In this document: piece after piece, positions 27,820 through 63,847 of the stretch
Layout of the letters: the number at the start of each line of letters is the position of its first letter
Position numbering within the stretch: position 1 is the first letter of the stretch
Origin: Rhabdophis nuchalis
Taxonomy: Eukaryota > Chordata > Lepidosauria > Squamata > Natricidae
Length of the DNA stretch: 64,000 bases
Direction of reading: 5' to 3'
Assembly (NCBI GenBank): GCA_039707465.1
Contig: CM077658.1
Coordinates: 12,274,574-12,338,573 of the forward strand
Made by a program: the position numbers and the translations under genes
The notes under the pieces: model-generated
Seen by the model: the letters and a program-made list of their open reading frames with translations, nothing else
The model's database searches: none
What the model was told of the DNA's origin: nothing

Positions 27820-27945
27820 GACTGGATGGAAGGCTGAGTCAACCTTGAGCTGGTGAGACCTGAACTGCCAAACTGCTGGAAGCTGGGAGTCAGCAGAAGT
27901 AGCCTGCAATACTGCATTCTAACCACTGTGCCACTGTGGCTCTTC
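27820..27945 (-). mobile_element. tRNA-derived SINE fragment
   Basis: 'ggaaggctgagtcaaccttg', 'cctgcaatactgcattctaa' and 'ccactgtgccactgtggctc' mark the head half of the SINE family at 58548-58795, minus orientation. Confidence 0.8.
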
Positions 27946-29392
27946 ATTCATATAAATGAATAAATAAATGCATTTATTGTTTAGCAAGCACTACTCCAAT
28001 GAGAACCTATGGAGAGCATAACAGCACTCTTTGATGATTAAAATATACACCCAAAATAATATTTCCCCCCTGAGAATAATAAATGACAACTTTGCATCCA
28101 TTAAACTATTCCATCTCCAGTGCCATTCCAGAGATTATAGTTGGAGGAGATTGTCCATACAAAAAAGTTAGGGAAAATGTTTTGGAAAAATATATTTACA
28201 TACATACATACATACTTTAGAATGGTTGACAATGGTTTACAATAGTTACCAAGACTTGATAGAGAAAAGTAAGGGAATTTAAAACCATAACAATGCCTGT
28301 CTGCTTTGTTATTCAGCAATGTGTTGTGCATCACTCTGTTGATGCAAACAAAAATGGTAATTATTCACTTTTTAAAAGCTAAAGAAAGTAAAGTTAATGA
28401 AAGTTCTAAGATCAGTCCCAAGAGCCTTGCCTGCAGAGAACAGAACAGAATCACAAATTTCTTCTGAAGTTGCTTTGCATTAAGGCAATTCTGAATTAAT
28501 TCAGATATATCAAATTGTATAATTTTCTTTTTCATCTTCCCAAGTCTCCTGGAGTGGGGAATGTAGAGATTCAAAATGATAATTTAAAGAATATAAATCT
28601 GAAGAAATAACTTTGAAAAATAATTGTGCCTCCCCTTAGAGCATTTAAGGGAACACAAAAAAAAATAATTCAGTCATGTAACAAATGACACTGTGCATTC
28701 TAAAATTCATGGTCATACCTTCAGGACTTTAATCCTGTACATGATATCTCATTACACAAAATTAAGTACTGCCATGAAAGCAACTGGTATTTTAAGGCTT
28801 AACAGATCAGCACGACAAGATCAAGAATTGAAGAAATATACAATGGGGAGTCCTGATGTGTGGCCCATGCTACTACAATCTTTGAGCATTCCTACATTCT
28901 CCTGAATGTGTGATTAGAGTTTTGTAGGCTGTGGAAATGTTGCAAAGACTTTAAAGAAAACCTGATTTTCACTTCAAGCATGATGAAAATAGGATTTGTA
29001 TTATTTAAAGAGGATGTGGGACAAATAACAGCTTCCAACTAATACATAGTGCTGAAAATCAGCTTTTTCATAGTTTGACTTTAATATTAATTGAATGCAT
29101 CTAAGCTCTAATTGTGTCGTGAGGTTTTCATTAATTTAATAATGATGTTATCTAGAGAAGCTTCCAAATGGGGCTACTGTCTGGGTTGATTTGAGCAAAT
29201 AGTGTGATATTCTTGGCTGATACACAAGTTGCCTATTTGTCTAACTACAGTGACTAAAGAACATTGTTCAACTATGGGATGTTTTTCAGCATAGGTGAAC
29301 ATGAATTATGGACTCCTCTTGATTTATCTATGAAATGCCTTATAGGTGTCTTGCTTTTCTGTGTATTATGATAAATGTTGTTTTGTTATTTT
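27946..29392. other. No recognisable feature
   Basis: Unassigned AT-rich DNA; a short (CATA)n run at about 28197-28215. Confidence 0.5.
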
Positions 29393-29622
29393 AAGAGCCA
29401 TGGTGACGTAGTGGTTAGGCTGCAGTACTGCAGGGCTAACTCATTGCTCATTCCAAGAGTTCGATCCTGACCAGCTCAAGGTTGATTCAGCCTTCCATTC
29501 TTGTGAGGTTAGTAAAATGAGGACCCAGATTGTTGGGGGCAATATGCTGACTCTATGAACCAGGGCTGTAGAAACACTATGAAGTGGTATATAAGTCTAA
29601 GTGCTATTGCTAAGTGCTATTT
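29393..29622 (+). mobile_element. tRNA-derived SINE, near full length
   Basis: The plus-strand head begins 'gagccatggtgacgtagtgg' with box A-like 'gtgacgtagtggttagg' and box B-like 'gagttcgatcc', then 'ctcaaggttgattcagcc' and 'ggacccagattgttgggggc', ending in 'aagtgctattgc' repeats. This is the sense copy of the family seen inverted elsewhere. Confidence 0.83.
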
Positions 29623-52578: not shown

Positions 52579-52862
52579 AATAGAAGTAGCAATAGCACTT
52601 ACTTAAATACTGCTCCATCGTGCTGCACAGCCCTCTCAGAGCACTTTGTCAGTATATTGCCTCCACCAATCCCGATCTTATTACTGACCTCAGAAGGATG
52701 AAAGGCTGAGTCAACCTTGAGCCAATTAGGATTGAACTCCTGGATGTGGGCAGAGAGCTAGCTTGCAATACTGCATTCTAACCACTGCACCAAGGACCAT
52801 GGTGGCTTGTGTGGTTAGGACACTGGGTTGGAGGTTAGCAAGCCCACATTTGAGACCAATGG
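52579..52862 (-). mobile_element. tRNA-derived SINE plus an adjoining tRNA-like head
   Basis: 52579-52790 is a minus-strand copy of the 58548-58795 family. Next to it 52797-52862 reads as a plus-strand tRNA-like head ('gtggcttgtgtggttagg', 'tttgagacc'), so two SINE heads face each other. Confidence 0.7.
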
Positions 52863-58547: not shown

Positions 58548-58795
58548 TAGCAATAGCAATAGCACTTAGACTTATATACCACTTCACATTGCTTTTGCAG
58601 TCCTCTATAAGCTGTTTACAGAGTCAGCCTATTGTCCCCAACAATCTGGGTCCTCATTTTACACACCTCGTCAGGATGGAAAACTGAGTCCACCTTGAGC
58701 CTGGTGACATTCAATCTGTCAAATTGCAGGCAGCCGGCAGGCAGCAGAAGTAATCTGCAGTACTGCATTCTAACCACTGCGTCACTGTGGCTCTT
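58548..58795 (-). mobile_element. tRNA-derived SINE, near full length
   Basis: 'atagcaatagcaatagcac', 'tttacagagtcagcctattg', 'aatctgggtcctcattttac' and 'gtactgcattctaaccactg', ending at 'gtggctctta' (tRNA head). The chromovirus target site lies 17 bp beyond this end. Confidence 0.82.
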
Positions 58796-58816
58796 ATGAT
58801 GTGGCCATTGACATAG

Positions 58817-59181
58817 TGTCAGGCCTGTTTCTTCGTTGACTCAGGAAAGATCACACTTAGACATTATTTTGAAATGTTAAGACTACTTTTACTAAGTTAC
58901 GAGAGCGTACAGACCAAGTAAAGCTGAGAATGAATAGTTTAGGCGCGAACAGAAAGTATTAAGCTTAAGCCCATCCCAATCCCCAAACCCCCCCTGTGCA
59001 TTGTCCAATATGCAGCCATCTCCAACATCAGGTGGGCAGGTCTTCACCATCCTGGAATGCAGGTCCGTTAGCAGGAGATAACACGAAACATCAACATTGT
59101 CCACCAGCAGAACACATTCACCCCAAACCCCCCACCCTCCCCGTTTCCATGGCAGCGAAACCAGAAATAGCGAGACTGACA
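58817..59181 (-). repeat. Chromovirus LTR (3' LTR)
   Basis: 365 bp, TGTCAG...CTGACA, the same length and, by eye, the same sequence as 63478-63842. In this copy the predicted R start is position 58931. Confidence 0.97.
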
Positions 59182-59198
59182 TCCGGACCTCCTCCAGG
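59182..59198 (-). other. Possible polypurine tract
   Basis: The minus strand next to the 3' LTR reads GGAGGAGGTCCGGA. Position is right for second-strand priming, but the tract is short and interrupted. Confidence 0.4.
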
Positions 59199-59296
59199 AA
59201 CAGCGGGAAATCTAGGGCAGCAATAGGCAGACGAGGGGCTACACCTGAAAGAGAAGAAGGGAGAGACAAAACAACGGAGAGGAGAAAGAAAAAGAG

Positions 59297-60596: not shown

Positions 60597-63440
60597 TTAG
60601 AACCAATCCAGGGAAGATCGTCTCTGAGATTTGCCTTCGCCTTTTGTTTTCAGAAGGTTTGTAATGGGCAAGGCAATATCAGCGAATGACGGAATAAATT
60701 GGCGGTAAAAATTCGCAAATCCTAAAAAACTTTGCAATTGTTTACGGGTACGGGGAGGGGCCCACTCCGTCACTGCCTTGACTTTAGCAGGATCCATTTC
60801 AACTCCCTCAGAGGAGATACGGTAACCCAAATAGTCAATTCTTTCCTGGTGAAATTCACACTTAGAGAGTTTGGCATAAAGTTCAGCGGAACGCAACTTA
60901 TTTAATACGGAGCGCACCAGTTTAACGTGCTCGTCATGGGTTTGCGAGTAGACGACGATGTCATCAATGTAAACAATTACTCCCTTGTAAAGGTGCTCGT
61001 GGAGAACCTCATTGATCAGTTGCATAAACACTGAAGGGGCACCTTGAAGACCGAAAGGGAGGACTTTGAACTGGAAACATCCGAGTGGACAGTTAAAAGC
61101 TGTTTTCCATTCGTCCCCCTCTTTGATCCTGACCCTGTAATATGCTTCACGTAAGTCCAGCTTCGTAAAAATCCTACCGGTAGCCAGGTGAGCAAGCATG
61201 TCCTTCATGAGCGGAAGGGGGTAAATATTGTGTTCACAAATGGTGTTGAGATATGAATAGTCCTGTATTAATCTTAGAGTGCCATCTTTCTTTTCTCTAA
61301 ACATAACTGGTGCAGCTACACGGGGCCTAGCTGGTTCAATGAAACCCCTTTGAAGGTTTTTATCGATGAAATTACGTAATTCCTCCATCTCCCGTGGGGT
61401 CATTGAATACATACGAGGTTTGGGTAATTGAACCCCAGGAAGAAAATCAATTGAACAGTCAGTAGCCCTATGAGGAGGAAGGGAATCACAAGATCTTTCA
61501 CTGAAAGCATCCTTTAGGTCCCAATATTCTTTGGGAATTTTCTCTTCACCTGGTATGACCTCGGGTGTTGGGAAATCCAATAAATGCGCAGCAGATTCAA
61601 TATGGGGGGGTGGCTGATGGCGCGGGGGTTGATCAGTTTCTGATGGAAGAGAGGTATCTTCCGGGAGGGATAAAGGAATGCGCACCCAACCTTCCTTCCA
61701 GTTTATCAGAGGATTCCATTTTCGAAGCCAATTGACCCCCAAAATTACAGCATTATCGGCAATGGCAGTTACAATAAAGTTGATGGTCTCAGTATGGCCT
61801 GTGCCTATAGAAACATGAATTGGTTCGGTGATAAAAGATGCTGGGGTTCCCCCAGCTACAGAACCATCCATTTGGCAAAAGGCTATGGGAGTTTTCAGGG
61901 TCTTAAGGTGAAACCCCATCGAAGACACGATGTCTTGGCTTATGAGGCATTTTGAACACCCAGAATCAATGAGAGCCTGCACATCGCATGTACGACCAGT
62001 AGATGGTGCTAAAAGCTTTAAATTAATATAAAGGGGCCCGGAGCGATGACTCACCAGATTGTCGTCAGAAGAGTCTGAAGACGCCTCCCAATCGTCAGGG
62101 CCAGCAGCTGGCTGGTCAGCAGAGAGGTTGGTGGGCTCCACCCCACTCATAGCCGGTTTGGCGCGCACAGTTGGCGTTCTAGGTTGTTTCCGGTCCAAGG
62201 AAGAAAATGGGCGTGGAGGTGGTTTTGATCGGCATTTGTCTGCCCAGTGCCCCTCCTTCCCACAGCGATAACAGCTGCCTGAACGAGGCTGGGTTGTTCT
62301 CCCCTCCCCCTGTTGCATGCGTTTCTCCCTCGCAGGGGGGTGAGATTTGGGGCTATCTTCCTGTGCTTTTTTCTCCAAGCGGACCGGATCCTGCAAGTGG
62401 GCATGATCCAACTCGACATCCGAAGCTAGATCTATCCAGTCATTCAAAGTTTCGGGGCGAAATCTGTTCACACATGTTTGATAAATATCTTTATTCAGCC
62501 CTTCAATATAAATGTCCATTAGGGCTTGTTCACTATAACCAACCATAAACACTGATAGCTCCTGGAAAATTTGCGTGTAAGCCTGAATAGACATGTTCCC
62601 CTGCTGCAAACTTTTTAGTTTCATTTTTGATTTCCTCTCAACACGGGGGTCTTCAAAACGCCTTCTAAGAGCATTCATGAAACGATCGAAATCGTGTAGT
62701 GCCGGTGAACGACAATTATGTAATGAAACTAGCCAATTAGAAGCTTGATCTTCTAGGGTCATAGATACAATTCTGATTTTGATTTCATCGTCCAAATCAG
62801 CTGCGTAAAACTGCATGTAATTATCAACGTGAATTAGAAAAAACGCCAGTTTGTCGGCACTTCCGTTGTATTTCACACCCAAAGGAGGCAGTTTTGCAAG
62901 TCGGCGGGGGTTAATGGGGTTGGCTTCCCTTCCAGCCTGAGGGGTGGGGGAGGGAGTTGCTCTCCTGCTTTGCCTGGCAGAAGCTGCCTCTCTTCGCAAT
63001 TTCCTGCCGGCCTGAGGAGGGGGGGATGGTGTTGAAACCCTGCTTCGTCTGCCCGGAGCTGCCTGTGAACCTCTTGGCTGTGGGCGATCCGCCTCCCTCC
63101 CCCGGATTTTTTCCAGGGCTAAATTTTTCTCATCTGCCTGGCGGAGTAGGTCCTGAGCCATCTCCCTTAGTTCCCGTTCCTCTCTTAGGAGCTCCGGAAT
63201 GACTCTCTTTGGGGAAATTCGACGCCTGGAGACGTTTACCCCACTCATTCCAACCCCTTCAGACCAACGTTTAGGTTTGACTGATTCTTCAGCAGGCAGA
63301 TTTAGATCTAGGCCAGCCAAACCTTCCATCACTGACCTGATCCCTTCAGATTGAGCAGGAGGATGCGATGCCTCAGCTCCCAAAATGGTTTCAGGCAGGA
63401 CCTCCACCAACGGAGGCTCCTCTTGTGAAGGGTCCGTCAT
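60597..63440 (-). CDS. Chromovirus gag-protease-reverse transcriptase
   Basis: 947 codons from the first ATG after the 5' LTR, 37 nt from it. Gag: charged, proline-rich N-terminus (residues 1-180), capsid-like region about 185-350 (LPPLGVKYNGSADKLAFFL...), CCHC nucleocapsid knuckle C390-C393-H398-C403. Protease: ALIDSG with catalytic D492 and the ILGVNWL motif at 566-572. RT: about 660-930 with catalytic D762 (KLDLREAYY) and YIDD 824-827, then FLGFANFYRQFI. Gag and pol share one frame, with no stop or frameshift between them. The protein ends at 947 with a 13-residue out-of-frame tail after LLKTK, where RNase H should begin; the stop at 60597 results from the deletion. Cytoplasmic particle assembly, polyprotein cleavage and reverse transcription are the family's roles. 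Confidence 0.95.
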   Translation of the reverse strand: MTDPSQEEPPLVEVLPETILGAEASHPPAQSEGIRSVMEGLAGLDLNLPAEESVKPKRWSEGVGMSGVNVSRRRISPKRVIPELLREERELREMAQDLLRQADEKNLALEKIRGREADRPQPRGSQAAPGRRSRVSTPSPPPQAGRKLRREAASARQSRRATPSPTPQAGREANPINPRRLAKLPPLGVKYNGSADKLAFFLIHVDNYMQFYAADLDDEIKIRIVSMTLEDQASNWLVSLHNCRSPALHDFDRFMNALRRRFEDPRVERKSKMKLKSLQQGNMSIQAYTQIFQELSVFMVGYSEQALMDIYIEGLNKDIYQTCVNRFRPETLNDWIDLASDVELDHAHLQDPVRLEKKAQEDSPKSHPPAREKRMQQGEGRTTQPRSGSCYRCGKEGHWADKCRSKPPPRPFSSLDRKQPRTPTVRAKPAMSGVEPTNLSADQPAAGPDDWEASSDSSDDNLVSHRSGPLYINLKLLAPSTGRTCDVQALIDSGCSKCLISQDIVSSMGFHLKTLKTPIAFCQMDGSVAGGTPASFITEPIHVSIGTGHTETINFIVTAIADNAVILGVNWLRKWNPLINWKEGWVRIPLSLPEDTSLPSETDQPPRHQPPPHIESAAHLLDFPTPEVIPGEEKIPKEYWDLKDAFSERSCDSLPPHRATDCSIDFLPGVQLPKPRMYSMTPREMEELRNFIDKNLQRGFIEPARPRVAAPVMFREKKDGTLRLIQDYSYLNTICEHNIYPLPLMKDMLAHLATGRIFTKLDLREAYYRVRIKEGDEWKTAFNCPLGCFQFKVLPFGLQGAPSVFMQLINEVLHEHLYKGVIVYIDDIVVYSQTHDEHVKLVRSVLNKLRSAELYAKLSKCEFHQERIDYLGYRISSEGVEMDPAKVKAVTEWAPPRTRKQLQSFLGFANFYRQFIPSFADIALPITNLLKTKGEGKSQRRSSLDWF
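60633..60645 (-). other. Deletion junction removing RNase H and linker
   Basis: The RT frame follows family sequence up to LLKTK (about 60650). The other frame already reads integrase-linker sequence (LRDDLPWIGSKIYVPATLRP) from about 60630. A short AAGGCGAAGGC direct repeat at the seam could be microhomology. About 200 residues expected from related elements are absent. Confidence 0.8.
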
Positions 63441-63464: not shown

Positions 63465-63475
63465 ATTCTCAGCTT
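63465..63475 (-). other. Primer-binding site of self-priming type
   Basis: Two nt inside the 5' LTR the minus strand reads AAGCTGAGAAT, complementary over exactly 11 nt to LTR positions 63592-63582 and mismatched on both sides. I see no TGG-type tRNA 3'-end complement here. Tf1 and sushi elements prime first-strand synthesis with the first 11 nt of their own mRNA at such a site. Confidence 0.8.
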
Positions 63476-63477
63476 AA

Positions 63478-63842
63478 TGTCAGGCCTGTTTCTTCGTTGA
63501 CTCAGGAAAGATCACACTTAGACATTATTTTGAAATGTTAAGACTACTTTTACTAAGTTACGAGAGCGTACAGACCAAGTAAAGCTGAGAATGAATAGTT
63601 TAGGCGCGAACAGAAAGTATTAAGCTTAAGCCCATCCCAATCCCCAAACCCCCCCTGTGCATTGTCCAATATGCAGCCATCTCCAACATCAGGTGGGCAG
63701 GTCTTCACCATCCTGGAATGCAGGTCCGTTAGCAGGAGATAACACGAAACATCAACATTGTCCACCAGCAGAACACATTCACCCCAAACCCCCCACCCTC
63801 CCCGTTTCCATGGCAGCGAAACCAGAAATAGCGAGACTGACA
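63478..63842 (-). repeat. Chromovirus LTR (5' LTR, promoter copy)
   Basis: 365 bp with the 6-bp inverted tips TGTCAG/CTGACA. From the PBS complementarity, U3 would be 63842-63593 and R-U5 63592-63478. Confidence 0.97.
63592..63625 (-). promoter_or_regulatory. Predicted LTR core promoter and transcription start
   Basis: On the minus strand a TATA-like CTTAATACTTT lies about 25-33 bp upstream of 63592. The first 11 nt from 63592 are ATTCTCAGCTT, exactly the complement of the PBS. In self-priming elements this 11-mer is the mRNA 5' end, so start site and TATA-like box support each other. Inference only; no transcript data. Confidence 0.6.
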
Positions 63843-63847
63843 CATAG

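What the first reader, a model, noticed from the sequence alone, without database searches (positions are those of the whole stretch)
63465..63592. Self-priming reverse transcription in a reptile chromovirus
Seen: 11 nt beside the 5' LTR (63475-63465) are exactly complementary to 11 nt inside the LTR (63592-63582), mismatched on both sides, with a TATA-like box 25-33 bp upstream of the LTR 11-mer. Known: yeast Tf1 and fish sushi use the first 11 nt of their mRNA as primer instead of a tRNA. Inference: this element does the same, which also predicts its start site to the base. A chance 11-nt match within a 365-bp LTR is unlikely.
Basis: partly seen in the sequence, partly recalled or inferred. 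Interest (0 to 1): 0.8.

Follow-up and report, generated by a model that had tools for sequence, protein, structure and literature searches.

The report
Self-priming jumping gene in a squamate
A young LTR retrotransposon in what looks like a snake or lizard genome carries the hallmark of copying itself with the start of its own RNA as primer instead of a tRNA, a mechanism already reported for its group in yeast and vertebrates, so it is a good new example rather than a new mechanism.

Summary
On the minus strand, an element with identical 365-bp LTRs (63842-63478, 59181-58817) and a 5-bp target duplication has, 2 nt past its 5' LTR, AAGCTGAGAAT (63475-63465), the exact complement of LTR 63592-63582, mismatched on both sides. 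Chance of such a match there: about 0.0004-0.001. No TGG (tRNA CCA complement) occurs in the first 68 nt after the LTR. The predicted transcript start, A63592, lies in a perfect initiator, but the claimed TATA box is poor. The leader folds into the 11-bp helix plus a U5 stem (z -3.7). 58 of 59 junctions found in the genome keep the PBS, but the family is too young to show covariation. One distant relative (L001) with a clear Gag has its own 12-nt match; a second (L003) is uncertain. Nearest named relatives are snake proteins. This copy lost about 667 bp including RNase H, kept by 18 of 20 sampled sister copies. Best reading: a Tf1/sushi-like V-clade chromovirus using self-primed reverse transcription, a mechanism established for the group: a new member of a known kind.

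The parts
63478..63842 (-). 5' LTR, 365 bp, TGTCAG...CTGACA
   Evidence: Identical to 3' LTR, 0 of 365 differences
58817..59181 (-). 3' LTR, 365 bp
63843..63847 (-). 5' copy of 5-bp target duplication CTATG
58812..58816 (-). 3' copy of 5-bp target duplication CTATG
63465..63475 (-). Primer-binding site AAGCTGAGAAT, 2 nt from the LTR edge
   Evidence: Perfect complement of 63592-63582; same 11 bases in 58 of 59 genomic matches of the flank pattern, the window's own included
63582..63592 (-). Self-primer ATTCTCAGCTT, predicted first 11 nt of the RNA
   Evidence: A63592 is +1 of initiator matches YYANWYY and BBCABW; no substitution among 38 insertions told apart by flank
63570..63576 (-). 5' arm (GGUCUGU) of U5 stem next to the primer helix
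   Evidence: Minimum-energy fold
63483..63489 (-). 3' arm (ACAGGCC) of the U5 stem, at the LTR end
   Evidence: Minimum-energy fold
60597..63440 (-). ORF for Gag, CCHC knuckle, protease and RT in one frame, 947 aa
59297..60562 (-). ORF for integrase (H2C2, rve, SH3_Tf2-1) and chromodomain, 421 aa
60597..60630 (-). Junction of a deletion of 667 bp that removed the RNase H region; the pol frame is broken here in this copy
   Evidence: RT tail then integrase without RNase H; 18 of 20 sister copies carry the missing stretch

Best explanation
This is a recent insertion of a vertebrate (V-clade) chromovirus of the Tf1/sushi kind. Its RNA most likely starts at 63592, so that its first 11 nt fold back on the PBS just past the 5' LTR; RNase H cuts after nt 11 and the freed 3' end primes minus-strand DNA synthesis in place of a tRNA. 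Shown here: the pairing, its place, the absence of a tRNA CCA complement, the initiator, the predicted fold and the protein relationship. Inferred from Tf1 (the 11-nt primer length and the cut are recalled): the RNA start, the cut and the priming. This copy lacks RNase H, so self-primed copying of it would depend on sister elements that keep it.
For: 11/11 pairing at the PBS position, chance 0.0004-0.001. No TGG in the first 68 nt after the LTR. A63592 matches both initiator consensuses, as do only 2 of 365 LTR positions (consensuses recalled). Fold of the leader -38.3 kcal/mol against -25.7 (sd 3.37) in shuffles, 0 of 200 as good, with the 11-bp helix and a U5 stem. Chromodomain, Tf2-1-like SH3 and chromovirus Pol; integrase groups with snake and Anolis sequences. 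The contaminant contig L001, whose next ORF is a Pfam-recognised Gag, has its own, different 12-nt match at offset 2 (12 of 20,000 resampled upstreams do as well), and its 11-mer starts at a perfect initiator. 37 of 38 insertions told apart by flank keep 11/11 pairing. Tf1/sushi elements are described as self-priming (PMC10085805, PMC6317226, PMC4600332; passages read).
Against: The RNA 5' end is not measured. The TATA box is poor. The third duplex of the Tf1 'pretzel' was not found: 91% of shuffles pair as well. The shuffle test includes the 11-bp helix itself, so it is not independent; in the centroid and in a longer fold the outermost pair opens, leaving 10. Copies are too young to show covariation, and 1 of 59 has a PBS change that loses one pair without a change in its primer. 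The matches in L001 and L003 were found by a scan of six loci that is expected to give 0.88 places by chance, with 2 or more in 9 of 60 random runs, and 1 place in each of two controls. L003's match follows pol, its next ORF has no Gag match and it has no initiator, so I no longer count it. This copy has no RNase H.
Confidence: 0.85

Rival explanations
1. The 11-nt match is chance, and reverse transcription is primed by a host RNA without CCA complementarity, such as a half-tRNA.
For: A match of about 1 in 1000 to 1 in 2500 can arise when many features are read. Half-tRNA primers exist in some Ty1/copia elements (PMC6317226, passages). Tests against half-tRNAs were not run.
Against: The match sits in the one place where a PBS must be and its partner starts at an initiator; L001 repeats the layout with another sequence. 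In that plant survey half-tRNAs were used only by certain Ty1/copia lineages.
Confidence: 0.08
2. The pairing is real RNA structure (packaging, dimerisation or translation control), but not the primer.
For: The leader folds better than shuffles, and structured leaders serve several roles (general knowledge).
Against: One paired arm is at the PBS position and the other at the predicted RNA start, and no CCA-complementary PBS is present.
Confidence: 0.05

Closest known systems
Tf1/Tf2 of Schizosaccharomyces pombe
   Same: Self-primer at the RNA 5' end paired to a PBS next to the 5' LTR; chromodomain integrase; single ORF (PMC10085805, passages). The 11-nt length in Tf1 is recalled.
   Different: Has a CCHC knuckle in Gag, absent from fission-yeast elements; no third pretzel duplex found.
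sushi-ichi and fish/amphibian V-clade chromoviruses (Butler et al. 2001, seen only as cited in papers read)
   Same: Vertebrate chromovirus with chromodomain; self-priming reported for the Tf1/sushi group.
   Different: No frame change between Gag and RT here, whereas -1 frameshifting is described as predominant outside fission yeast (PMC10085805). In 5 of 6 contaminant loci (two of them, L004 and L005, nearly identical) the pol ORF overlaps a preceding ORF in the -1 frame.
Amn-ichi, Anolis chromovirus (Piskurek et al. 2009; only part of a title seen, in a reference list)
   Same: A full-length chromodomain Ty3/gypsy element of the first reptilian genome (title); Amn-like elements belong to the V-clade, present in sauropsids (PMC2774666, passages). 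That the Anolis element is Amn-ichi is recalled.
   Different: Sequence not available here; whether self-priming was described for it was not seen.

Membership tests
Tf1/sushi (V-clade) chromoviruses | Chromodomain at the C-terminus of integrase | tested here: met
   PF00385, 48.4 bits, residues 367-414 of 421
Tf1/sushi (V-clade) chromoviruses | Pol belongs to the fungal/vertebrate chromovirus clade | tested here: inconclusive
   Integrase groups with squamates (support 0.998 with Anolis, 0.986 with snakes, only 0.529 with Pseudonaja), then frogs and fish; midpoint root, no labelled Tf1 or plant-clade sequence in the tree
Tf1/sushi (V-clade) chromoviruses | PBS within 0-5 nt of the LTR complementary to at least 10 nt of the element's own LTR (criterion of PMC6317226) | tested here: met
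   11 nt, offset 2
Tf1/sushi (V-clade) chromoviruses | PBS not complementary to a tRNA 3' end | tested here: met
   No TGG in the first 68 nt past the LTR; half-tRNAs and a host tRNA set not tested
Tf1/sushi (V-clade) chromoviruses | Self-primer is the 5' end of the RNA | not testable with these tools
   Only indirect: initiator at A63592
Tf1/sushi (V-clade) chromoviruses | Three-duplex 'pretzel' leader (PMC10085805) | tested here: inconclusive
   Primer helix and U5 stem in the fold; third duplex no better than shuffles
Tf1/sushi (V-clade) chromoviruses | RNase H to cut the primer (Levin 1996, title seen only) | tested here: inconclusive
   Absent in this copy; present in 18 of 20 sister copies sampled, no match in the other 2

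The most novel reading that the evidence does not exclude
The RNase H-less copy in the window was itself made by self-priming with RNase H supplied in trans by sister elements that keep it, so that primer cutting in this group need not be done by the element's own polyprotein; combined with a single gag-RT frame this would be a variant of the vertebrate sushi life cycle. The deletion may equally have arisen during or after that copying.
Probability: 0.3. Interest if true: 0.4.

Novelty: new member of a known kind. Interest (0 to 1): 0.27.

Why it matters
It gives a very young family, apparently squamate (59 junctions found, LTRs almost identical in the 38 compared), in which the self-priming prediction is exact to the base and can be checked in ordinary RNA data. 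The mechanism and the presence of chromoviruses in reptiles were already known, so the gain is a clean example rather than a new principle.

Tried and rejected
Two scans of viral contigs with RT found no relative. Rfam had no match in the window at gathering scores, and ARAGORN (bacterial code) no tRNA. No other copy or solo LTR of the family was found in the window by blastn or tblastn. A TATA box was looked for and not found. A third pretzel duplex was looked for and not found. The test that mattered most, the PBS of other chromovirus families in the same genome against their own LTRs, could not be run: the whole-genome search answered two requests and no others on this question.

Literature: passages were read in PMC4600332, PMC10085805, PMC3601003, PMC6317226, PMC2774666, PMC3899998, PMC4340606 and PMC7472051 (the last two add nothing here). 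Levin 1995 and 1996, Lin & Levin 1997 (RNA) and 1998, and Butler 2001 are not held; I know them here from titles and citing sentences. I saw no report of self-priming in a squamate in the listings of searches, which cover open-access papers only; Butler 2001 may hold one.

Full report
What is there. The element lies on the minus strand, 63842 to 58817, flanked by CTATG on both sides; its two 365-bp LTRs are identical. One ORF holds Gag, a CCHC knuckle, protease and RT, a second holds integrase with a Tf2-1-like SH3 and a chromodomain. Between them no RNase H region was found.

The finding. The 11 nt at 63475-63465, 2 nt past the LTR, are the exact complement of LTR 63592-63582, with mismatches on either side. 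Three null models give 0.0004 to 0.0011 for a match this long at this place. In the window as a whole such inverted repeats are not rare (20), so it is the location that carries the weight. There is no TGG in the first 68 nt after the LTR.

Start site. But A63592 is the +1 of both initiator consensuses tried, YYANWYY (4 matches in 365 bp) and BBCABW (5 matches); only one other LTR position meets both (consensuses recalled).

RNA fold. The leader from 63592 folds at -38.3 kcal/mol with the 11-bp helix enclosing a 7-bp U5 stem, and 0 of 200 shuffles fold as well; in the centroid, and in a fold with more downstream sequence, the outermost pair is open. This resembles two of the three duplexes described for Tf1 (PMC10085805, passages). 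The third was not detected: 91% of 1,000 shuffled downstream pieces pair as well.

Other copies. The genome (1.92 Gb, 348 contigs) holds many copies. A pattern fixing only the PBS flanks gave 59 matches, 58 with the same 11 bases (the window's included) and 1 with a change in the base farthest from the LTR; that copy's primer is unchanged, so it pairs 10 of 11. Among 38 insertions told apart by their 5' flanks (39 loci given, one duplicate dropped), 12 of 424 sites show substitutions, none in the primer and one in the PBS; indels were not counted. The family is too young for covariation to show, so this neither proves nor refutes the pairing.

Distant relatives. Six contaminant contigs in bacterial records carry chromoviral RT. 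A scan of all six for an 11-nt match near a CA found two places: 12 nt at offset 2 in L001 and 13 nt at offset 1 in L003. At those places alone the chance is 12 and 1 of 20,000, but the scan as a whole is expected to give 0.88 places, with 2 or more in 9 of 60 random runs, and each of two controls gave 1 place. L001's place lies 90 bases before an ORF that Pfam recognises as Gag (54.8 bits) and its 11-mer starts at a perfect initiator, so I count it. L003's lies after pol and before an ORF with no Gag match, and has no initiator, so I do not. In the other four loci an ORF already runs from within 14 bases of the contig's start, so no LTR/gag junction could be read.

Kinship. Among the best 120 of 841 protein matches, the nearest named ones are from Pseudonaja (66%), Crotalus, Micrurus and Anolis, then frogs and fish; the tree puts the window among squamates. 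Tf1/sushi elements as a group are described as self-priming (PMC10085805, PMC6317226, PMC4600332; passages), and a full-length chromodomain element of Anolis is published (title), with Amn-like elements forming part of the V-clade. So the kind is known.

The deleted copy. In 18 of 20 sampled sister copies the two sides of the junction are separated by a further 667 bp that encodes RNase H; the other 2 of 20 gave no match in the fetched stretch. The window copy therefore carries a deletion that those 18 lack. Both its LTRs share a base at 63821 that the 37 other insertions compared lack, which fits one recent copying event. Whether the deletion came before, during or after that event cannot be told.

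Verdict. Observation confirmed, interpretation well supported but not proven; ordinary for its group. Confidence 0.85, lowered from 0.87 when L003 was dropped.

Noticed in passing
G000:C7:1648885-1654617: Two copies of the LTR/PBS junction lie 5,329 bp apart on the same strand, close to the 5,328 bp expected between the LTRs of one undeleted element (4,661 + 667), which suggests a tandem array sharing an LTR.
   Followed up: no
window 63821 and its 3' LTR counterpart: A base present in both LTRs of the window copy differs from all 37 other insertions compared.
   Followed up: partly
window 63440-60597: Gag, protease and RT share one uninterrupted frame, unlike the overlapping -1 layout of 5 of 6 contaminant chromovirus loci, two of which are nearly identical.
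   Followed up: partly
window 58716-58796, 27865-27944, 29392-29433, 52764-52788: The 3' flank of the element resembles three other places in the window (85-96% over 25-80 bp), so it probably landed in another dispersed repeat.
   Followed up: no
L001-L006: Contigs filed under bacterial genomes carry what look like eukaryotic chromoviruses, that is, probable contamination of those records.
   Followed up: partly
window 59182-59200: The stretch before the 3' LTR is only a short, interrupted polypurine tract (GGAGGAGG then TCC).
   Followed up: no
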